A stretch of 64,000 nt of DNA from Neofusicoccum parvum. Lineage: Eukaryota; Ascomycota; Dothideomycetes; Botryosphaeriales; Botryosphaeriaceae. Under the pieces are notes generated by a model. The model made no database searches, was not told where the DNA came from, and saw only the letters and a program-made list of their open reading frames with translations. The position numbers were made by a program, and so were the translations under genes. The stretch spans positions 558,001-622,000 of the forward strand of contig CP087215.1 in assembly GCA_020912385.1 (NCBI GenBank), in the 5' to 3' direction. Shown here one piece after another: positions 17,827 through 61,800 of this stretch (the stretch's first letter is position 1; every line of letters starts with the position of its first letter).

Positions 17827-17833
17827 TATAAAT
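17827..17833 (+). promoter_or_regulatory. TATA box of the tannase gene
   Basis: TATAAAT sits 62 nt before the ATG at 17,895 and overlaps an upstream in-frame ATG at 17,832. If it is the TATA box, transcription starts after 17,832, which favours 17,895 as the real start. Confidence 0.5.
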
Positions 17834-17894
17834 GGCAAGCATGTCCTACTACGACCTAACCATAAAAATCTTCACAAGAATTCTTGCCCACACA

Positions 17895-19484
17895 ATGGCT
17901 CCTATTGTTTCTGTCCTGTTGCTCTTTGCAGGTTTCATTCATTCTACACTCGCAAACGTCCTCCCACAGTGTTCTCACCGTGCTATCAACGAACTCATTC
18001 CACCCACTGCAACCATCAATTACGTCCGCTATGTACCGAGAAACAGCTCATTCGGCGATGCAGCCGCGCTTGGGAATGCGACAGGGCTTCCAGAAGGCTG
18101 TGCCATAGGAATCAACGTACTGTCTTCGAATACCTCGTCCTACAACTTCGCGCTGTTCCTTCCGAACATCTGGAACTCTCGATTCTTGGCGACTGGAAAC
18201 GGTGGTTACGGTGGATTCACGAACTGGGTATACATGGGCATGTTCTCGCAGTACGGGTTTGCTACGTTATCCACGGACACCGGGCATATTTCTGGAATTG
18301 GAGATACCTCTTGGGCCCTCAATGCGCCCGAGCGAGTTGTCGACTGGGGTTATCGCGCCATGCATGGTTCGGTTGATCTTGGCAAGAAGGTGGTCCAGGC
18401 CTATTATGGCAATCGGATCAACTACTCGTACTATGCAGCCTGCTCGACTGGCGGAAGGCAAGGCCTGAAGGAAGTTCAAGAATACCCTGAAGACTTCGAT
18501 GGAGTTCTCGTCGCCGCGCCGGCGTGGCTGCTGACGCGTCTACCTGCGTTGGCCATACAACTCGCCAACCTCAACTTGCCCTCAGATGATCCGAAACATA
18601 TCCCAGCCGACATGTTCTCCACAATCACCAGCGAAATTCTCAAGCAGTGCGATGGCCAGGACGGCGTCGTCGATTCGATAATCATGGATCCAGGAAGCTG
18701 TCGATTCAGGCCAGAATCACTTCTCTGTACAACAAGGAGCAGCGCGGCAGACTGCCTCACTCCACCACAGCTGAAGACGCTTTATCGTTTGCTGGAAGAC
18801 GAAATCCAAGTTGACCAAGTTTCCGTCCTCCCGGCTCTAGCTCTTGGTGCCGATCTTTCCTCGACCGCTGGCGTTACCGATGCACCGATGCCCATGGGGA
18901 TTGGATTCATACAGAACATGGTGATGAACAATACAGACTGGGATTGGGCTACCTACAACCTTGGAGACATCCAGCTCGCCGAGGAGGTCAATCCTGGTAA
19001 TGCCACCTCGGATAATTACGACCTATCAGCTTTTCGTGCCCGAGGTGGCAAACTCATCCATCTCCACGGACTTGCGGACCCAACCATCCCTCCAGGCCTC
19101 AGCGTATACTTCCGCGATCAGGTGCAGCAGACGATGAACTTCTCAGAGGCAGCCCTCAACCAATTTTATCGAATGTTCCTCATACCAGGATTGGAACACT
19201 GCTTTGGAAGCACTGCGGCTCCTTGGTATGTTGGCACGGAGCATCTCGAAGGAGCGAGTCATGGCGTACCTGGATATGAAGACCCAGACCACGATGCTAT
19301 ACTAGCGATGATGCTCTGGGTTGAAGACGGTGTGGCGCCCGATCGAATCATCGCGACCAAGTTTCAGAATGATGACGCGGCAGCGCGCGTAGAGAGACAG
19401 AGACCTCTATGCCCGTACCCACAGCAAGCTCGTTACAATGGTGGCCTGGTTGACGAACCAGCAAGTTGGGATTGTACTTATTAA
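17895..19484 (+). CDS. Secreted tannase/feruloyl esterase family protein
   Basis: Hydrolyses ester bonds of plant phenolics (gallate or ferulate esters) outside the cell. The gene has no intron. I choose ATG 17,895 (529 aa) because it gives a clean signal peptide (MAPIVSVLLLFAGFIHSTLA) and because the in-frame ATG at 17,832 lies inside the TATA box; the longer form would be 550 aa. The family catalytic set is present. The nucleophile motif CSTGGRQG is at about residues 183-190, with the Cys that pairs with a later Cys. The acid lies in HGLADPTIPP, and the His in LEHCFGS, whose Cys completes the CS-D-HC arrangement. Several N-glycosylation sequons are present. Tannases and feruloyl esterases of this family cannot be separated from sequence alone. 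It is divergent from a Zn2Cys6 gene. Confidence 0.9.
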   Translation: MAPIVSVLLLFAGFIHSTLANVLPQCSHRAINELIPPTATINYVRYVPRNSSFGDAAALGNATGLPEGCAIGINVLSSNTSSYNFALFLPNIWNSRFLATGNGGYGGFTNWVYMGMFSQYGFATLSTDTGHISGIGDTSWALNAPERVVDWGYRAMHGSVDLGKKVVQAYYGNRINYSYYAACSTGGRQGLKEVQEYPEDFDGVLVAAPAWLLTRLPALAIQLANLNLPSDDPKHIPADMFSTITSEILKQCDGQDGVVDSIIMDPGSCRFRPESLLCTTRSSAADCLTPPQLKTLYRLLEDEIQVDQVSVLPALALGADLSSTAGVTDAPMPMGIGFIQNMVMNNTDWDWATYNLGDIQLAEEVNPGNATSDNYDLSAFRARGGKLIHLHGLADPTIPPGLSVYFRDQVQQTMNFSEAALNQFYRMFLIPGLEHCFGSTAAPWYVGTEHLEGASHGVPGYEDPDHDAILAMMLWVEDGVAPDRIIATKFQNDDAAARVERQRPLCPYPQQARYNGGLVDEPASWDCTY

Positions 19485-21771: not shown

Positions 21772-24700
21772 TCACCCGCCACTTCCGAAAAGTGCATCAA
21801 TCCTGGCCTCCCTATCCCAAACCTTCACACCGTCAGACCGACGCTTAAAGTATAGGATCCGATGCTGAGGGATGAACTCCTCGTCTGTCTGCTCCAGTTT
21901 CCAGCGGTCCAGCGGGGTCTCCCGGGTGCCCAGAAAGCGGTCCGTATAGCCCACCACGTAGTCAAGACTATTTAGCTTTGGATCCCAGCGTAGCCGATTG
22001 AGAATGTCCGTTGCCGGACGAAGCTTTCTGCCGGAGACGGGAAGTGTCACCTTGGAGGTAGACGCTCTGCCCTTGCCTTTGACCTCCGAAACACTGGGTA
22101 TCTGAGCTTCGGCGTCTTCTTGCGCAGACATGTCACTGATCTCCTCTTCGTCGTCTTCATCTTCAAAATCCAGGCCGTCCTCCAAATCCGCATTGTCTCC
22201 CCAGTCCCTGCTGTCCACGATGAGGTGCTCTAGCTTGGACCGGCTGACATGCTTGACGTCGATCCACGCCAAGGCAGGGTCGAAGAAACTTTCGTTCCCA
22301 CGGATCTGCTCAGAGAATCTCTCCAGAGCTCCGTCCAGCTTATTCTGAGCCAGCTTCCGGTCAGATTCAGTTTTCACACTCGACTCAACACCCGGCCTTT
22401 TCGCAAGGCCTATTAAGTAGCATCCGTGTTGGTCGCCCTTGTCGTCACCACTGTGCTCGTTCCGTGTGAATCGCATAGGCCACATGCGGGCATGGATCTC
22501 GGGTGTCTTTCTGTGAAGATCTGCAAGCTCACAGGTTAGATGGTAACAAAGGGTTAGCGAGAAGCTGAATACACACCGACGAGCAACATCGGACACCGGC
22601 TTTCTATCCATCCAATCAACTGTCTCCCCTTGACTGGGCTTGTTCCCCAGTATTGAACGTCAACCCGAACATAGCTTTTGTAAGCGGCCAGGAACTGTGC
22701 CGTGCCATGCCCGTTCTCACCCACAATACTCGCCCAAGTCACTCCGCTGCTTGCAACAAGGCTGTCTGCACGCCGGAGCTCTTCAACGAGCACGCTGACG
22801 GCAGGTGCGCTTGCAGCTCTTGCAACGTTCGCACGTGGGACGTGATAGCCAAGAACAACCATTGGTTCTCCTGCATGCCGATGGTAAGCTCTCCCCATCC
22901 CAGGCGAGGAACGTGTAAGCGGGTCCTCGACAATGTCCCGGGCCCAATCAAAATCTGCGTAGTACCTGAAGAAGGTGCAGATAAGATGGGCTGCTGTTAT
23001 GGCCTCGTTGTCGTCTCGTCGGTGGTGGTGCAGTAGCTTTGCAACGCGGTCCAGGAGCAAAGAAATGTGGGTACCGCTGAGAAACCCAAAGCGAGCTGCA
23101 TATATTCCACGGCTTACGGCCCAAGCAACCAGGAAACGGTAAGCAATCCGAAAAGCGGACAGGTCCGGGGTGGTCTGTAGGAGATGCGCGAGATCCCTGA
23201 CTGCCTTGAGTTTGGAAAGGGTCTGGAGGGGCAAGGAGAACAGCGGGTCTGTCGCGGGGAGGGAGAGCGGAGCAGGCCAGCTGGGTCAAATAAGGTTAGT
23301 ATTGAGATGATTTGCAGTTTGGCATCACTTACGAGACGGCGATACGGGCGGCAGCACAGTACTGAAGATCAAACTTGACGCCCTTGACGTCGAGTTCAAG
23401 CATGGTACCTGAGTGTGCCTCTACCTTTCGGAGTATGCGGACACCTTGAACAGCAGCCTTTCTAAGGTGCTTCACAGCGAGAGTGAAGAAGATCTTTGAG
23501 CTAATGGAGCTGATGCAAAGACAATCAATGTCCGAAGAGGAATTCCAGGCACCGAGACCGTACGAGCCGACGGGAACAACGACTAGCGGAATCCTACTAC
23601 CGACGGTTGAGAGTTGCTGGAGAGTAGTCTCCAATAGAGCAAAGGCTTGCTGCCGTTTGTGCGTGTCGTCTGCTGTTGGGAATGCCGGGTGACGCGTGAT
23701 AAAGGTCTGCAGTGCCACCGGGCATAGACTTGCTGGCGGATTGACTGCAGGAATTCCCTGTATTTCCACATCTACCGAAGTAGGCGACTTGGTGAGTTTG
23801 ATGGTTGCGCGGACTCCCCAATGATCGCTTCCACAGCGCTGCTCATCTGGACCAGGGCGTCCAAACGTGTTGAAACTTGCGACCTCCATAGATTCTTCAC
23901 CTTTGAGCAGGATTCTGTCGTATCGCTGGGGTCTGTGAGTTAGGCCATGGCCCACAATCTCAGCGGCTAGCGGATTCGTCCTCGGATCAAACGTTGCGCC
24001 CTGTTCTCCCTCGGCGACGTCGTCATCTTGAACATCTGAGTCAAAACTTCCCCCATGCGACTGAGCGACTGCCCAGGTATCTGAAAGTCCTGCTTCTGAA
24101 AGGAGCTGCTCCAGCCCCTGGAGAGTACGAACTGTCTGAGGTGATATGGATAACGTTTTGAGAGCGTCATCAATGGTGCGGGTCGATGTTGTCATGTTAA
24201 AGTCTCCCGCAACAATCCATGGAGACTCGGAGTAATTCCCAGCCAGGTGGCTGACCAGTGTGCGCAGCTGACTCTTCTTGGCTGCCACAGAGCCATCAGT
24301 CAGGCCGCATGTGAGGTGAAGACCAGCTACGATCAGTGGACAAAAAGTTCCAGAGGGGAGAAGCCTCCCAATGTGGCCCAACCTGACCACGACGGACCCT
24401 TTGTGGCGCCTCTCAAATGCCACCATCTCCCAGTCAAAACTCCAGCGCGAGAGCACAACAATGTTGCGCAGGCTCAGCAAAGGCCCGATTTCTTCCTGAT
24501 TCGGAGGCGCGTGGGATACGTATGGCCACAGCTCTCTGACATCGCTATTTTGAAGAAGGTGAGAGAGAAATTCATCGGACACCTCCTGGAGGACAACCAG
24601 ATCAGCACGGCCGGCGTCAGAGACAAGTGCTTGGACCAGAATGCCGAAGCGCTCGTATGCGGGCGGGAAGATGGAATCCACCAAGACGTTGTAGCTGGAT

Positions 24701-25422
24701 ACGCTGAATGATGGTGGCATGGTCTGCAGTGTACCGGCCGTTGAAGAAGGGATCCAGGAGACCGCAGAGGAGTCAAAACGATATGTCGTCCCCTTCTGGA
24801 CATTGCTTGTCGTCGACGAGGACTCCGTCTTGAGCTGTGGAGACGAGGGTGCTCTGTCGTCTCCCTCTTCTCCATCCGTGGGGATCTCAATGGTACTCCA
24901 TACTCTCATGACATTGTCCTCTCCTCTGACCAGTAATGCCAACTCTTTCAATGGCCAATAAACGGCCGGTAGCAAGCGTGCTTTGGCGTGTAGTGAATCA
25001 CGAAGTTCGTCATTGCCAGCTTGGCCGATGGTAAGGTGTGGGTTGAACTCAGTGGAATGCTGGCCAAACTCGACCAGCAAAACACGGCGAAGCTCTTGCA
25101 GGTCTTCGTCATGTCCGGGGCGGATGTAAATGGTGCTGCTGTGCTTGTGGGTAAAGCAGCCCGTTTCATTGAGCCTCAATCGATCTCCGCGCAAACTGGC
25201 TTTGCTGACGGCCGAGCGCACAAGAGAAGTGGCGGCGGAGAGTGATTCAGGATGTACAAAGGGATAGACCAGATTGATGTGGGCGGGCCATTTGTGGTAT
25301 GCTTTATCGTAGGCGGCGCGTAGTGTGTCGGCATGGCCGATCAAGTGCGCGGGCGGAACAATTGCCAGTGCGGTTTGGTGGCAAGAAAGCTCGGGAACGG
25401 TGTGTGTTGAAGCCTCAGCCAT
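21772..25422 (-). CDS. Multidomain RNA-repair-type enzyme: 2H phosphoesterase, EEP nuclease, PAP/nucleotidyltransferase, MJ1316
   Basis: Proposed exons: 23,333-25,422, 22,577-23,280 and 21,772-22,520 (1,180 aa); introns of 52 and 56 bp, both with GT..AG ends and continuous frame. Domains in order: a LigT-like 2H phosphoesterase (about 1-185; HINLVYPF and HLTIGQ) expected to open 2',3'-cyclic phosphates. Next an endonuclease/exonuclease/phosphatase (about 230-560; SSYNVLVD, LQEVSDEF, VAGDFNM, GSDHWGV). Then a nucleotidyltransferase core (about 575-700; GSYGLGAWNSSSDIDCL, third Asp in VKFDLQYC) and a poly(A)-polymerase-type central domain (about 700-880). An acidic linker (DFEDEDDEEEISD) leads to a C-terminal MJ1316/DUF504 domain (DILNRLRWDPKLNSLDYVVGY, preceding FIPQHRILYFKR). 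MJ1316 is described as recognising RNA cyclic ends. The order suggests sensing, trimming and re-extending RNA 3' ends in one chain. All catalytic residues look intact. Likely cytosolic or nuclear. Confidence 0.85.
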
Positions 25423-40228: not shown

Positions 40229-43200
40229 TTAAGAATCCCAAATTGCGCCGTACGCGGGAATGCCGCGACTCTCCATCGCATAGACGACCTTCTGGGTCAA
40301 TTTCTTGTTGGAGATGATGCACACGGCCTCGGCTCCCAACTCCTTATACAGGCGATACGAAATGGCCACCATGTCGGGCTTGCCCATGGTCCTCGTGTTG
40401 TGGATCACGGCGTTGGGGTCCGTGTCGTAGACCTCCTTCACAATCTCCTTGCCAAACGTCTGCTCCGGGTGGGGCGTGGACCAGAAGATGCGGCAGGGCA
40501 CTCGTTTCGCCATAATCACCGGCAGACAGGGCCCGATTCCAGAGCCCGTGGCGACTAATACGATGCTTTTGAATAGGGGGGCAATGCGCAGGACGCCGCA
40601 GGCTGGGATGCCGCGGACCCAGATTTCGGTGGGGCAGCGCTCGATCTGGCGCTTGGTCCAGTCGCCAGCATTTGAAACAACAAGCGAGAATCCCTTCTTG
40701 CCCGGCTCGCTGATGGTCGCAAACGCGTGCCATTCGACCAGAGGCCGTTCCGACAGCCGAACGGCCGTTCCGGGATAAGTGTCCGTGTAGTCGAAGTGAA
40801 GCCGAATCGCGTGGTCAGACAGCTTCTCCGACCGCACCTTGACCTTCCTGAGACGCACCCACGGCAGCACGATGCTGATCGTGATGACCACAATGAGCCA
40901 GAAGCCGGCGCTCGAAGCCAGAGCCTGTCCAAGCGGGGTCGCGCCGCGGAGAGAGTCGACGGTGAGGATAGTCTGGACCCAGATCAAAGCAAGCGCAGTC
41001 CAGCCGGCGAAACGATGCACAAGCTCGAAGTGGTCGTGGTACTTGGCACGGATGGCAGGGTAGGCCATGACGATCATGCCGAGCAGAAGCAGGACCACGA
41101 GGTAGCTCACAACGAGAGCCGCAAGACTGATCGGAACCTCGGGATCGCCGATGGCGTAGTACCTGGTGGCCGCGATGATGAATGCTGTGAACCAGATCGT
41201 GGCCATGACTGCGCAGCCACTGTGCAGCCCGCCGATGTGGAAAACACGGGCACATTGCCGCCGAATCGCCAGAGGCATCCAGGTAGGAACGGCAGTAGCA
41301 AGATTGAACAGCGCATTGATGACGTACTCCTGGCGCATCAGAATGGCAAAAGTCAGGTTCGCTGCGGTAGCCGTGGTCATACTCTCCAGGCGGAACGTGT
41401 GCGTTTTCCAGTATCCGGAAGCGAGGACAATAACCGGCACAATGTTCGCAATCCAAACAATGGAGAAGAACCTCCTGTACAGCGAGAAGAACCGATGACG
41501 AAGCCAGCGCTCGCCGTGGATCCCGTTCTTCTCCGGCAGGGTGAAGTCTTCCTCCACCTCCTTCTCCTTCAAAGAGCCAGTGGAGGATGACGGAATCGAT
41601 GAAACAACCACGACTCCCTTCTCCGGGTCCTTGGAATCCGCGACATGCAAAGACGCGGGTGGCGTGTCCAGCCTCAGAGATTCGGGCGGAGTCTCCGGCG
41701 GAGTCTCGGGAAGCTGGGCCGGGGAGCTTTGGGCAGCCATGCCCTTCAAGCATCTCTTGTCAACCTTGCCATTGGATGTCAGGGGCATTTCAGCCACCGA
41801 AATCCATTTTGTCGGGACGGCATAGTACGGAAGAGATTTCTCCGTGTGCTGAGTCAAGGCGGCCCCGTCAACCTCAGTGTGAGTGGAGTAAAAGGCCCAG
41901 AGGGCGCCGTCAATCAGGATGGCACATGCCTTTTCAACACCGTAAAATTTCTACACAAGTCAGCACTAAACAGCAGGCTTGAATTGGAAAACCTTACCTC
42001 GATGACAGATGCAACACCGTCAAGCTCCACGCGGAAACCCTTGATCTTGACTTGGTCGTCTGCACGTCCAAGGATGTCCAGGGAACCATCCTTTCGCCAT
42101 CTGACGAGGTCGCCGGTGTTGAACATCATGCTGCCATCCTTTTTGAATGAATCGGGTTTGAATCGAGATGCTGTCAGCTCAGGAAGGTTCAGGTAACCGC
42201 GAGTCACTCCCTTTCCGCCCACCCACATGGCACCGACTTCACCGATCGAAACGGGCTGCTCGTCTTCGTTTAGGATGTAGACGGTTGTGTTTGGGATTGG
42301 CTTTCCGATGCTGAGTTCCTGTCCCGGCTTGTGGATGTGAGCAGTGTTGAGAATGGTGATTTCTGTTGGGCCACAGATGTTCACAAAGGTGGTGTCCACC
42401 GCCCACTCATCGGCCAGCCTGAAACCTTTTAGCTACATGAATGCTAAAGCATACTCAAATGAGTGAAAACGTACGATTGAGGGCAGCGTTCTCCCCCGAC
42501 GGCGATGGTTTTTAGATTGGGGTAATCTGCCTTTCTGTACTTTCCCAAGATTGACGGTGTTCCGATGAAGGTGTCGGCCTACAAATCATCAGCGAATCAA
42601 ACCCAAGACCGCAATGTGCACGCAACTTACCTCACGAAGAGCTGCGGCCCAATCTGACGTCCGTAGAATCAGCGTTCCACCGTTCATCAGACATCCAAGA
42701 ATTTCCCATGCCGCTTCTTGTGGTCAGCACAGATCTGCAATGGTTCAATGCTGGAAACTCACCCATATCGAAGGAGATGTTCAACACCTGTGAGACTTTG
42801 GAACCCGGGACGATGTCCAGGTCAGCAGGGGAAAGACACAGAGTGTTGGTGACATTCCCGTGAGCCACATCGACACCTTTCGGCATGCCAGTAGTTCCTT
42901 TGTCTTGTCAGCGCGAGTATTCAAGGATCAAAGGCAGCGGCTTACCTGAAGTGTAGATGATGTAAGCACCGTCCTTCTCAGAAACATCCACGTCGGGTCG
43001 CCCAGTCGAATAATTTTCCGTCTGTGCGGCATCCAACACGTGGATCTGCTGGGTGGGTGCTGTGTTTCGCTTGACCTTGTCCTCAAACTTCGCTAAGCAG
43101 AGGATTACAGGGGCTTGGGTGTCGGAGAAGATGTGGGCCAGCATCTCTTCAGTGACAACTCCACCATCGATGGGGACATACTGGCAGCCAGACTTGAGAA

Positions 43201-43507
43201 CGGCAAGGATGGCTACAAGCATGGAGATAGAGCGCTGAACAACAACACAGACACGCTCCCGGGGCTGCAGCCCAGACTGGATGAGGCTGTTGCTGAGCTG
43301 GTTGGCCTGCCGCTCAAGCTCGCCGTAGGTGATGGTGATGCCATTGTGGCTGGCTGCCACGAGGGTTGGCTCGATGTCTGCAATGTGTTCGAACGCCTTG
43401 TGGACGAGAGTGAATGGTCGAGGCTTGTTTCGCCCACGCCCAAACTCAATGAACTGCCTGCGATCGTGGTAGGGGAGGCTTTCGAGGTTCTGGAAGGCCG
43501 GCTCCAT
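40229..43507 (-). CDS. TmpL-like membrane flavoprotein: AMP-binding domain fused to ferric-reductase-like domain
   Basis: Exons 42,946-43,507; 42,763-42,897; 42,631-42,713; 42,475-42,578; 41,998-42,418; 40,229-41,950 (1,008 aa). The N-terminal half is an NRPS-type adenylation domain. It has YTSGTTGMPKG (A3, built across a splice), NICGPTEITI (A5), GDLVRWRKDGSLDILGRADD (A7) and LTSNGKVDKRCL (A10). No carrier or reductase domain follows. A Pro/Ser linker leads to about six membrane helices (for example IVWIANIVPVIVLASGYW). A C-terminal FAD/NAD(P) module follows (FAD side near VRLSERPLVEWHAF; VLVATGSGIGPCLPVIMA). This order matches TmpL of Alternaria and A. fumigatus, linked to redox balance and virulence, and resembles TmpA of A. 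nidulans. The start at 43,507 is chosen because upstream codons are unlike coding sequence. Confidence 0.88.
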
Positions 43508-44931
43508 TGTGAAGGTATTAATAGGGCATATAGAGGGGTATATGGGAAGAGAGGAAGAGGGAACGAAAGCAATGAGGGCGAAACAAACGGGCACAGTGCA
43601 CGGAGATATATACTGAGGACTGGCAGCCAGATGCTGAGGTACAGCAGCACAGAGCTCATCGGCAGATTTACCGGATGTGATGGATGGCACGAGTGACATG
43701 GAATTGGGGTTGTGCATTGGATACGGCAGCAAATGCAAGGATGAGCAGGCGCTGCATCGGGAAACCTACGAGTCGATATCAAACAGCCAGGAGGCCTCGT
43801 GCGTAAGGGTAGCAAGGAAGCGAGCTGTTCCAGACGGGGCTAGCTGGAAACAGAAATATTGACAAGCCAATCCGCACAGAGCTCCAGCGAGCGACCGGCG
43901 TATCACGGAAGCGGAAGCAGGGCTGGCGGTCTCGATTCCGCCGGAGGGTTTTACACTGGGGCTGTGCGGGCGTCGACGGAGTGACGGTAACGGCGCCTAA
44001 CCAACCAAGGAATCGGCGCAGGGTCCTGGGCTTGGAGATGCGGTTTTGGTCGACGTGTGCCGGCAGAGCTGCCTTGTCCGGTAAGGCATGCTCGTATACG
44101 TCATTGGTCTTGATCGCAACAACAACAGGACGATGGCGGCAACGGTGTAGCAGAATGGCACCATTGACAGGATTTCAAGGAAGCCAGAGCGTAAACAATA
44201 CGCTGGCGGTGGGTGCTAGCCTGGATGCGGCAGGAGCCGTGCTGCTGCATGATCAGCAGGCGAAGGCCCGTACGGGCGCAAAACGAGCTCTATGGCAGGC
44301 GGGAGCAGGCTGGGACGGCAGGCCCACTACTCAATCAAACACATGGGACCTGATCGACGTCCCATGAGGCTCGCCAAAGCGACATCGCAGGCCACGCAGG
44401 AGGAGGCGTGGGGGGACATGGAGCGCACAGTGATCGGGCCGGTGGCTGGCCGGTGATCGGACGGAGCCGAGAGATCGGATCATTGCTGGGGGGCGGAGTC
44501 GCGGTCCGGGGATGCAGGGCAGGGTGGCTGCAGGCGTCGGCCGGAGCGAGTGCCCAAGGCGGGAGCTAGGAGGAGCTCGGGGTAGCAGGGAGGCGCGGCG
44601 GTTTCCAGTGCGGGCGCTGTCGCCGGGCTGAGCTGGACCCTCGCGCCTGCAAATGAGCGGAGCGCCTGATGCAGGCGACACGCACACCGGTGGGTGAAAC
44701 GGCTCTCGTGGTTGCAGGCGCCAAGATCGTTTCACGGGCGGACCGCGAGTCAGTGTCTGGCGAGGCTGCGACTAAACATGGCCGCCAGCGCTTGCCCGCG
44801 CAGATGATTAGTGGAGCAGCGGGAGCTCCTTATAGCTGGCTGCGGACGGGCCATTACGTAGACTCTGGTATACTTCCGGACGGCCTGCCGCGACGAGACG
44901 GCGCCGCGCAGACTCGATTCCATCTTCCACC
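43508..44931. other. Divergent promoter interval, no gene supported
   Basis: Lies between the TmpL-like gene (-) and the enoyl-CoA hydratase gene (+). GC-rich at 44,350-44,930. Short contradictory frames on both strands show no motif. Confidence 0.4.
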
Positions 44932-58817: not shown

Positions 58818-61800
58818 TTAACCGTTGGTCAAGTCGAGTACCTCGACCTCGCTCTGCCTCCACGCTCTCCGCCTGCTCCTGCCATCTGCCTTCTGCCCGC
58901 CACCCCGATTCTGACTGGGCCCATCGCCTGTCATGTCTGAGTCGTCCACGCTGGACGCATCAACCAATTTCCAGCCTCCTTCGAGGCTCTGGCGCACCTT
59001 GATCATCTGCTTTTTGTCTATCTTGGTCGCAGTGTTACGAAAGATCCCACCCGCCGTAGAGCTCTGCCAAGGTGGAGATATGAGATTCGTAACTGTGCTA
59101 ATTGGGACCTCTCCTTCTGCGATCGAGGTGCAGCGGTGCCGTGGGGAGCGTCGCAGTTCTGGCGCCGTCTCGCCCGTTCTCAGCGGTATCGGGCTTGGTG
59201 AAGTGCGATGTTGGCGTGGTGAGCGTCGCAGCCGTGGAGACATCTCGAGCGATGCTAGTCTGGATGCTGTCGTGGAAGACGCCTTCTCAGACCTTCGTGT
59301 TACTTCCGTCGCCTTTGCACATCTAGCCCTGTTCCCGGACGTGGCCTGAAGTGCCCTATCGCCCGAACTCCTTGCTCCTGTGCGAGTTGCGCGTCCTGAT
59401 ACTTCCTCGCTTGGCCGCCGCGAAAGCTGCGACGATGTCTGAGCTCTTGAACTGAGTAGTTCTTGGGCTGCCTTACCCCGAATCACCGGTGGGGAAGAGT
59501 GACTGAGATCTAGCTCTTCTACTTCCTCAACTGAGTGCACGAAGGCAGACACCTCCTTCTCGGGCGCTTCTAGAGAATTTTCTCGTCGCGTCTTTGAAGG
59601 AGTGCCGCTCTTCAAGAACCCGAAAGACTCCTCGAGCGTAGTCTGTCTCTTCGAGGGCGACACATCGTTGGATGCCCTGTGCCGCTGTTGTCGTTTTGAT
59701 GGGGTGCTCGGTCGCCTTGCTTGCGAGAGACCACCTCTTGTTCCGGTTGGTTTCTGCACCTGAGATAGTTGTGGCAGTGATTCTAGTTCGCGTATCGGAT
59801 CGAGCACTGATGATGTGAGAAGATCTCCTGCCATTGGAGAGGTCTGAGATCCATCGGGAATTGCTGCAGATTGGCTTGGCACAGCATCTGCGCAACCGCC
59901 GGGGGCGGTCTGTGAGCGTCTCAGAGTGCGGGCACGCTTAGTAACGTTCGGCGAGAGGTAGTGCTCATCTAGCGTCTCTGACTGTGGTCCCAGTTCCTTG
60001 CGTGGTGCAACAGGTGACGAGGACAGAATATCGATGTGGACAGGCTCCTTCGTGGTCTGTGGAGGTAATTTCGGCGCGACGGAAGGCTTCCGTCTTCCTT
60101 GATCCGATGAGGCCGTAGGAAAATCACTGGGCGTCTTGCGTGTCTCGGACGGCGCAGAAAGATCCAGTCTGTCAACACTTGGAGATCGACGCTTTGCTGA
60201 TGGAGGCGCAACGCCGGCTTTTGTAATCTTTGCAAATTGGTTCAGAGTTCCTCTTTGCATGCCACCAGCAGCCTTCTTGGCGGCTCGAGGCTTCGTGACT
60301 TTGGCTGGTTTTGGGGCTGTCTTCTTACGCTGAGCCTCTTCCCAATCTTGCACAGTGAGTGGCGTGCCGACTTTGACAAAAGTCTCGCATATCCAGATCT
60401 TTTCCAGCTTGGTAGGATCGTACAAGTACGGCCCACGTTTTTTCGGCGCCTCGCCGTCGCCATCGCCGAGCACCTCATCTTCGTCCTCATCTTCGCCCTC
60501 CTCCGGCTCATCATCGGGTTCTTCAGCATCCAAATCAATATTTACAATACCAATGGGGGAAAAAGCGATACGGAGTTCGGTGGTGTTATCAGTAGACGGA
60601 TGCTGGCGCTTGCCATGGATGCTCGTCACCAGTTTTGCTTCTTCAGCTTCGGCAATCTCAGGCTCGTCTGGAAGAGAACCATCCGCGGCGGCTTGCCCAC
60701 GCATGCGGAGATTCCGGACGAGGAGAGCAGGTGCGAGATTCCGAATAAACTTCTTCGCTCCTGTTACCTTCACCCAATCAAAGGCATCGGCTGTGAAGGT
60801 TCGTAACTCGGGGAAGTTCAAGTCCTGATCCCAGCGCAGGTTTCGCCTTAGCCGTTCTAGGCCATCGCGGGACGAGATTGCTGGATTGATGTAGTAGTTT
60901 AAGATGTCTGCACGAGGGAAATCCTCCGGAATGGCGAGGGCTCCATGCTTCCGTTTGAAGAACTTGCTCTCGTTCGTGCGCAGTTCACGAGCAAGATCCT
61001 CTCGCCACTCCTGGATGGCGGCCGTGTCTCTCTTGGCAATCGCGCAGAGCCTGCTGCCAAATCCAGCACGAGCAGCTTCGCAGGCGATTTTCGGTCCACA
61101 ACCTGGAATACCTTCGGGCAGATAGTCCCCTCCACTCATCAGCGCAACGAGTATCATTCCCTCCCGATCCAACCCTGATGGCCCCGCCTTGGTCCTCTCA
61201 GCGTCGTACACGTTGACGTGTGTAGGTACTTTGCTCGACTTTTGGTTGGGCGACCAATTGCGCAACGAGATGCGGCTCCCAAACATGAGGGTATCGACAT
61301 CCTCGCTCAATACGGCATCCACAATGCCCTCTCTTTGTAACAATGCGCATTCAGCCTCGGCCTCACCCGGCGCAATGTGAAATGGAAAGCCGAACTGCTT
61401 CAGCAGCTGCTTTGCGAGAAATTCTGGGATAGAGGCGACATTGGGACCGGTTCGCTTGTTTCGCTTGAACGGAGGCTTGTTGGGTCCATCAAAGACGAAT
61501 AGCGGATTTATGGAGTGCGAGAGGAGTCGTAGGAGCCGATAGTAGAAGGTGCGGAGTGCAGGGTTCGTTCCACCTGGAAGACCGGGGTTAGTAGAGGGAC
61601 CGCAGAGGGAGATGAGCAGTGTACCTTTGCTCGACTGGATCTGGAACAGCCAGATGGAGGTGTCGATCGCGATGCGCAGCGGACGGCCGGTTTGCTCAAA
61701 CTTTTCGACAGCGAGCTTCAAGAGCGCTATGCGGTCTCCGGGCCCGATTTCTTTGTAGATGCTGCGACGTCGTCAGCGGCGGCCAAAGGGCGAGATGTGC

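What the first reader, a model, noticed from the sequence alone, without database searches (positions are those of the whole stretch)
21772..25422. Four RNA-end-processing domains fused in one fungal protein
One 1,180-aa chain joins a 2H (LigT-like) phosphoesterase, an EEP nuclease, a PAP-type nucleotidyltransferase and an MJ1316 domain. Motifs seen: HINLVYPF, HLTIGQ, VAGDFNM, GSYGLG...SDIDCL, and DILNRLRWDPKLNSLDYVVG. MJ1316 and 2H domains have been linked in comparative genomics to RNA cyclic ends, and the PAP core implies nucleotide addition. The order suggests a self-contained 3'-end repair or maturation enzyme. The combined activity is inference; as far as I know it is biochemically undescribed in fungi.
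Basis: partly seen in the sequence, partly recalled or inferred. Interest (0 to 1): 0.75.

Follow-up and report, generated by a model that had tools for sequence, protein, structure and literature searches.

The report
Fungal four-enzyme RNA-end processing protein
A fungal gene encodes one long protein that joins a cyclic-phosphate-type phosphoesterase, a metal-dependent phosphodiesterase, a full poly(A)-polymerase module and a predicted RNA-end-recognition domain; many moulds carry the same protein with its active sites kept, but I found no report of anyone testing what it does.

Summary
Three minus-strand exons (25422-21772, two short GT-AG introns) encode exactly 1,180 aa: 2H phosphoesterase, EEP domain, poly(A)-polymerase (PAP) module and MJ1316. 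Of the 120 homologues listed, 112 carry all four Pfam domains. Relatives' frames break at or next to both predicted splice positions. Both introns fall inside the PAP fold, which argues strongly against separate genes. The host is close to Neofusicoccum parvum.

Best reading: a heal-then-tail enzyme for RNA 3' ends bearing a 2',3'-cyclic phosphate. All of the chemistry is inferred. The architecture is in databases and the kind is known; this is a member of an uncharacterised family.

The parts
23333..25422 (-). exon 1 (ATG at 25422): 2H domain, EEP domain and the catalytic palm of the nucleotidyltransferase in one uninterrupted frame
   Evidence: 723-codon open frame
23281..23332 (-). intron 1, 52 nt, GTAAGT...CAG with branch-like CTAAC; falls at aa 697, between NTase palm and PAP central domain
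   Evidence: 17 of 79 listed relatives' frames end their match at aa 694-698
22577..23280 (-). exon 2: PAP central domain and first part of the RRM-like domain
22521..22576 (-). intron 2, 56 nt, GTGTGT...TTGCAG with branch-like CTAAC; phase 1 inside codon 932, within the RRM-like domain
   Evidence: 9 of 79 listed relatives' frames end their match at aa 931-940, five of them at 931 exactly; same position and phase in the C5 paralogue
21772..22520 (-). exon 3: rest of the RRM-like domain, acidic linker, MJ1316 domain, stop codon
24913..25356 (-). 2H phosphoesterase domain (PF13563), aa 23-170; motifs HINL (aa 48-51) and HLTI (aa 129-132)
   Evidence: nearest solved structure 2d4g, E 1.3e-4
23821..24696 (-). 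EEP (Exo_endo_phos, PF03372) domain, aa 243-534, TDP2-like fold
23518..23568 (-). nucleotidyltransferase catalytic motif GSYGLGAWNSSSDIDCL, aa 619-635; third Asp is D685
22752..23153 (-). PAP central domain (PF04928), aa 740-873; holds the changed nucleotide-pocket positions aa 748, 759 and 760
22195..22700 (-). RRM-like C-terminal domain of the PAP fold, about aa 891-1040 (interrupted by intron 2)
21811..22020 (-). MJ1316 domain (PF04457), aa 1099-1168, the most conserved domain of the chain

Best explanation
The gene encodes a single-chain heal-then-tail enzyme for broken or processed RNA 3' ends. Proposed steps: (1) MJ1316 and the RRM-like domain dock an RNA whose 3' end carries a 2',3'-cyclic phosphate (MJ1316 role from the literature, not tested). 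(2) The 2H domain opens the ring to a terminal phosphate, most likely 2' (inferred from the superfamily). (3) The metal-dependent EEP domain removes that phosphate or the blocked terminal nucleotide, leaving a 2'-OH/3'-OH (inferred; ANGEL2, an EEP protein, is a precedent for terminal phosphatase activity). (4) The PAP module adds one or more nucleotides to the fresh 3'-OH, possibly not only A (inferred from the changed pocket). The tail then either rescues the RNA or marks it for decay. Shown: the fusion, its conservation, intact catalytic residues, PAP and TDP2-like folds. Inferred: every chemical step, their order, and the RNA substrate.
Against: No activity, substrate or expression datum for any member. 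The EEP is nearest in fold to TDP2, a 5'-end phosphodiesterase in the complexes listed, rather than to the CCR4-type rows (Nocturnin 22.6, PDE12 22.0, CNOT6L 22.0 against 27.1); that weakens step 3 as a 3' phosphatase. By single sequence the EEP matches no solved structure at E<0.05. The first 2H motif is H-x-N in 114 of 117, not the H-x-S/T given as defining. In the window and its four Botryosphaeriaceae relatives the pocket Lys/Arg (aa 748) is Val, so tailing may be weak there. Some annotated relatives have only PAP-MJ1316 (about 635 aa), so the two halves may be separable. The full-length model has pTM 0.52: the arrangement of domains is not known.
Confidence: 0.5

Rival explanations
1. Two-ended RNA repair: the TDP2-like EEP works on a blocked 5' end (an adduct, protein or cap-like group), while 2H, PAP and MJ1316 work on the 3' end of the same or another fragment.
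Against: Fold likeness at 21% identity does not fix the end acted on; no 5'-end recognition domain is present; TDP2 subfamily residues were not compared.
Confidence: 0.2
2. Decay tagging rather than repair: RNA fragments with cyclic-phosphate ends made by metal-independent RNases are opened and tailed so that 3' exonucleases can degrade them.
For: Same domains and the same first steps; no RNA ligase domain is in the chain, so rejoining is not built in; PAP-type tails can mark RNA for decay (established knowledge, recalled).
Against: No decay-factor interaction or tail data; ligase activity could be supplied by another protein.
Confidence: 0.2
3. Oligonucleotide signalling: the NTase makes, and the 2H and EEP domains degrade, a 2'-5'-type or cyclic oligonucleotide.
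For: 2H domains can also cleave 2'-5' oligoadenylate and cyclic oligonucleotides (PMC9503650 passage); the EEP protein PDE12 is called a 2',5'-phosphodiesterase in PMC9525292 (passage).
Against: The NTase is a canonical RNA-tailing PAP with the RRM-like RNA-binding domain, and MJ1316 is tied to RNA ends.
Confidence: 0.05
4. Annotation artefact: separate neighbouring genes read together.
For: Some annotated relatives are only PAP-MJ1316 (P0138, P0146, P0148, P0152, P0153, P0155).
Against: Exon 1 alone holds 2H, EEP and NTase palm in one frame. The PAP fold spans both introns. 112 of 120 listed homologues are joined. In L023, a distant relative, two frames cover aa 1-705 and 712-1179 and intron 2 is absent. 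In the tree the short forms fall in several places, P0148 with full-length Talaromyces sequences, so they look like repeated splits, losses or model errors, not an ancestral two-gene state.
Confidence: 0.02

Closest known systems
Orthologues in other moulds, e.g. Diplodia seriata P0001, Lasiodiplodia theobromae P0002, Aspergillus flavus P0016 (named 'poly(A) polymerase pla1' by its source)
   Same: same four Pfam domains, same order, 43-69% identity over nearly the whole length
   Different: none in architecture; Botryosphaeriaceae have Val at aa 748 where 110 of 117 have Lys/Arg
Canonical eukaryotic poly(A) polymerase (PAP alpha, PAP gamma, yeast Pap1, Pla1)
   Same: complete fold: NTase, central and RRM-like domains; three metal-binding Asp
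   Different: fused to 2H, EEP and MJ1316; the pocket Asn is replaced by A/S/G/T/L in 117 of 117, followed by K/R in 117 of 117; the genome's own separate PAP keeps the Asn
TDP2 (tyrosyl-DNA phosphodiesterase 2)
   Different: no TDP2-level sequence match (profile E 0.02 over a short C-terminal stretch; single sequence none); different partner domains
ANGEL2 and other CCR4-type EEP enzymes
   Same: PF03372 domain; ANGEL2 is a terminal 2'-, 3'- and 2',3'-cyclic phosphatase on RNA (PMC9525292 passages), the activity proposed here for the EEP
   Different: CCR4-type structures score lower than TDP2; ANGEL2 itself was not seen in the list, so it was not compared
MJ1316-domain fusions of RNA repair (LENG9, C12orf65-MJ1316; Burroughs and Aravind 2016)
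   Same: MJ1316 joined to RNA-repair-type domains in eukaryotes (PMC6514570 passage; LENG9 as 2H-MJ1316 is recalled)
   Different: whether the 2016 paper shows this fungal four-domain form could not be checked: it is not held

Membership tests
2H phosphoesterase superfamily | PF13563-type 2H domain | tested here: met
   PF13563 E 7.5e-30, whole profile 1-152
[quoted passage not shown]
   second motif H-x-T: T in 115 of 117; first motif is H-x-N: H 115, N 114 of 117. Both His are kept; the first Ser/Thr is not.
2H phosphoesterase superfamily | 2',3'-cyclic phosphodiesterase activity | not testable with these tools
   needs assay
EEP (Exo_endo_phos) superfamily | PF03372 over cut-off and catalytic Asn, Glu, Asp-x-Asn, Ser-Asp-His | tested here: met
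   33.2 bits against 24.5; N245 117, E280 117, D407 115, N409 116, S532 117, D533 117, H534 117 of 117
TDP2 | TDP2 fold as nearest relative | tested here: inconclusive
TDP2 | 5'-tyrosyl phosphodiesterase activity | not testable with these tools
   needs assay
canonical poly(A) polymerase | NTase, central and RRM-like domains in that order | tested here: met
canonical poly(A) polymerase | catalytic GS...DxD and third Asp | tested here: met
   G619, S620, D631 and D633 in 116 of 117; D685 in 112 of 117
canonical poly(A) polymerase | nucleotide-pocket Lys, Tyr and Asn (bovine K228, Y237, N239; numbers and role recalled) | tested here: not met
   Tyr kept, 116 of 117; Lys/Arg in 110 of 117 but Val in the window; Asn in 0 of 117. 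PAP-like fold stands; adenylate specificity is not to be assumed.
MJ1316 (PF04457) | domain over curated cut-off with conserved core | tested here: met
   67.9 bits against 26.3; 29 of 80 columns at least 95% identical in 117 rows
MJ1316 (PF04457) | binding of 2',3'-cyclic RNA ends | not testable with these tools
   literature statement only (PMC6514570); no solved structure found by sequence

The most novel reading that the evidence does not exclude
A fungal single-polypeptide heal-and-tail machine: it senses 2',3'-cyclic-phosphate RNA ends, clears them with two successive phosphoesterases and tails them with a PAP whose lost pocket Asn and added invariant Lys/Arg give it a nucleotide preference other than canonical poly(A) addition. 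In Botryosphaeriales it is accompanied by a catalytically empty RRM-MJ1316 paralogue that competes for or guards the same RNA ends. This would be an RNA-end pathway in moulds parallel to the Trl1/Tpt1 healing route.
Probability: 0.25. Interest if true: 0.75.

Novelty: new member of a known kind. Interest (0 to 1): 0.5.

Why it matters
If the inferred chemistry is right, moulds carry one protein that can take a cyclic-phosphate RNA end, which most sequencing protocols and most RNA enzymes cannot use, and turn it into a tailed end. That would give a direct handle on what happens to RNAs cut by ribotoxins and other metal-independent RNases in fungi, and would be a test of the proposed function of MJ1316, which rests on comparative genomics in the passages seen here. 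The protein is often auto-named polynucleotide adenylyltransferase or even Pla1, which hides it and may mislead studies of fungal polyadenylation.

Tried and rejected
Artefact of exon joining: rejected (see rivals).

CCR4/ANGEL-type EEP, my first guess: not favoured after the fold search, though ANGEL2 itself was not among the rows shown and the lead over other EEP families is modest.

Placing the EEP by sequence alone: led nowhere. The single-sequence search gave only a sphingomyelinase at E 0.099, and the profile gave TDP2 at E 0.02 over about 46 residues.

MJ1316 against solved structures: nothing (best E 0.31, chance). 2H and MJ1316 folds were barely tested by the fold searches, because PAP and EEP fill the list.

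Viral relatives: two scans of viral contigs with A1 and A3 found none confirmed. One scan of prokaryote genome contigs with A3 gave 2 loci. L023 was read and is fungal in content; L024 was not examined.

Wider taxonomic reach: not settled. The homologue lists are capped or word-limited (120 of 690 shown; 79). Absence elsewhere is not shown.

Literature: searches showed, in their listings, no paper on this fused protein. The key 2016 paper (10.1093/nar/gkw722) and the 2002 2H paper (PMC137960) are not held. I recall that the 2016 paper catalogues eukaryotic MJ1316 fusions; I could not check whether this one is among them.

Full report
Gene model. The finding's coordinates are exact. On the minus strand, exon 1 (25422-23333), exon 2 (23280-22577) and exon 3 (22520-21772, stop included) give 1,180 aa. 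Both introns are short GT-AG introns with a branch-like CTAAC. At intron 2 other GT-AG pairs also keep the frame open. Relatives decide the matter: among the 79 proteins, mapped on the window protein, 17 end their match at aa 694-698 (intron 1 is at 697) and 9 at aa 931-940, five of them at 931 (intron 2 is in codon 932). I read these as unspliced frames that run into the same introns; that reading is inference, since the gene callers used by the sources are not shown.

One protein, not several. Exon 1 alone carries 2H, EEP and the NTase palm in a single 723-codon frame. The PAP fold, 544-1031 in the orthologue model, straddles intron 1 (palm / central domain) and intron 2 (inside the RRM-like domain), so splitting at either intron would break the PAP. 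Of the 120 listed homologues (690 at E<=0.001, of 7,984 candidates scored), 112 carry PF13563, PF03372, PF04928 and PF04457 together; the eight that do not are P0006, P0008, P0011, P0046, P0062, P0071, P0076 and P0088 (read from its table). A distant relative on locus L023 has two frames covering aa 1-705 (31.7% identity) and 712-1179 (29.3%) and no intron 2; its EEP match is below Pfam's cut-off.

Host. The C5 paralogue of this genome reproduces, from its DNA, a protein deposited from Neofusicoccum parvum letter for letter (P0121). The genome is 43,992,428 bases in 18 contigs. N. parvum or a very close relative is the likely source.

Domains and active sites. Pfam finds all four named domains over their cut-offs; the NTase palm model is just under its own (20.4 against 21 bits). 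In an alignment of the window protein with 116 of the 120 listed homologues (those of 1,100-1,320 aa; P0006, P0011, P0062 and P0115 dropped by length), the catalytic positions are near-invariant: 2H His48 115, His129 117; EEP Asn245 117, Glu280 117, His369 116, Asp407 115, Asn409 116, Asp533 117, His534 117; NTase Asp631 and Asp633 116 each, Asp685 112. Domains have mean pairwise identities of 0.47 (2H), 0.55 (EEP), 0.56 (NTase), 0.53 (PAP central), 0.52 (RRM-like) and 0.69 (MJ1316), against 0.20-0.27 for the three linkers. Each domain is therefore under constraint, and MJ1316 most of all.

A changed nucleotide pocket. The profile alignment to solved PAPs puts the family's IYSxK at the canonical IYSN (bovine, human) or VYAN (yeast). 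The Asn is found in 0 of 117 sequences (A 63, S 44, G 8, T 1, L 1), and the next position is Lys or Arg in 117 of 117. The genome's own separate PAP keeps the Asn (IYAN). The nearby pocket Lys is Lys/Arg in 110 of 117, but Val in the window and its four Botryosphaeriaceae relatives, and Ala or Thr in P0080 and P0118. That these residues contact the incoming nucleotide is recalled; a paper search for it found nothing. The consequence, an altered specificity or, in Botryosphaeriaceae, weaker activity, is inference.

First 2H motif. It is H-x-N in 114 of 117, whereas the superfamily is defined by two H-x-S/T motifs (PMC5283653 abstract). Both His are present, so I treat catalysis as likely but membership by motif as inconclusive.

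Genome complement. There are two MJ1316 matches (this gene and C5), two PAP_central matches (this gene at 40.2 bits and a canonical-like one on C4 at 203.8) and two PF13563 matches (this gene and C9). A search with the EEP piece found only this gene at E<=1. So the protein is an addition to, not a replacement for, the canonical PAP.

The short paralogue. The C5 gene encodes a 328-aa protein (P0121) that aligns to aa 892-1180 of the window protein at 29% identity, E 9e-33: RRM-like domain plus MJ1316, no catalytic domain. Its single intron (482 nt) lies at exactly the corresponding codon and in the same phase as intron 2 of the window gene (residue 56 against 932, phase 1), which points to descent from the fused gene. 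It is listed in Neofusicoccum, Botryosphaeria, Diplodia, Aplosporella and Saccharata, which I recall as Botryosphaeriales. A hit labelled Cladochytrium tenue (P0128, 45%) is likely contamination or transfer; not followed up.

Shorter relatives. Proteins of about 635 aa with only PAP-MJ1316 are annotated in several species (P0138, P0146, P0148, P0152, P0153, P0155), with N-termini not matching the EEP. In a tree of 75 rows (58 of the 116 full-length ones, 16 shorter ones, the window) they fall in several places, P0148 with full-length Talaromyces sequences at support 100. This suggests repeated loss, fission or split gene models rather than an ancestral separate gene. The quick method and SH-aLRT support only were used.

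Mechanism. From these parts the most likely role is healing and tailing of RNA 3' ends with 2',3'-cyclic phosphate. MJ1316 is said to recognise such ends and to be fused in eukaryotes to RNA-repair domains (PMC6514570, one passage). 2H enzymes are a widespread way to open them, leaving a 2' phosphate (PMC9503650, passages), although Usb1 enzymes show the product can be 3' phosphate or cyclic (PMC5591277, passages). An EEP enzyme, ANGEL2, removes 2'-, 3'- and cyclic terminal phosphates (PMC9525292, passages). The PAP would then extend the 3'-OH. The weak link is the EEP: its nearest fold is TDP2, whose listed complexes are with 5'-phosphorylated products, so it may act on 5' ends. I put the heal-then-tail reading at 0.5, two-ended repair at 0.2 and decay tagging at 0.2. 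The last differs in outcome, not in the first steps.

Novelty. The architecture is annotated in well over a hundred database entries, and the kind, MJ1316 fused to RNA-repair domains in eukaryotes, is in print. No paper on this protein appeared in the listings. So it is a new member of a known kind whose biochemistry is open. What I believe is not described, by the same searches, is the TDP2-like nature of the EEP, the family-wide pocket change, and the empty RRM-MJ1316 paralogue.

Noticed in passing
L003 3124-4592 (contig C5 of the window's genome): Two-exon gene for a 328-aa protein with only the PAP RRM-like domain and MJ1316; aligns to aa 892-1180 of the window protein and shares intron 2's position and phase; homologues listed in Neofusicoccum, Botryosphaeria, Diplodia, Aplosporella and Saccharata.
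   Followed up: yes
L023 1412-5366: A contig filed under a Deltaproteobacteria MAG (NYXK01000179.1) carries a divergent copy of this fungal gene in two frames; the contig looks like a mis-binned fungal one.
   Followed up: partly
P0128: A protein labelled Cladochytrium tenue (a chytrid) is closer to the Neofusicoccum short paralogue (45%) than Saccharata's is (40%): contamination or transfer.
   Followed up: no
P0102: A protein labelled Lasiodiplodia mahajangana groups inside Xylaria-like sequences and is only 44% identical to the window protein, unlike the other Botryosphaeriaceae (65-69%): the label or assembly looks wrong.
   Followed up: no
P0016, P0086, P0101: Source names such as 'poly(A) polymerase pla1' and 'Nuclear poly(A) polymerase 1' are given to this fused protein, although it is distinct from the canonical PAP.
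   Followed up: partly
window 58818-61772 (-): Gene with XPG_N, XPG_I and GEN1_C domains, a Holliday-junction resolvase of the Yen1/GEN1 type.
   Followed up: no
window 17832-19484 (+): Tannase/feruloyl esterase family gene; the neighbours scanned show no link to RNA metabolism.
   Followed up: no
window 40229-43765 (-): Frames that read like an AMP-binding adenylation domain followed by a membrane and reductase-like region, possibly one fused gene (by eye; the 40232-41950 piece matched no Pfam family).
   Followed up: no
G000, 81 PF03372 matches: Many EEP matches lie in frames of over 1,000 aa in near-identical copies across contigs, probably LINE-type retrotransposons (inference from copy number and length).
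   Followed up: no
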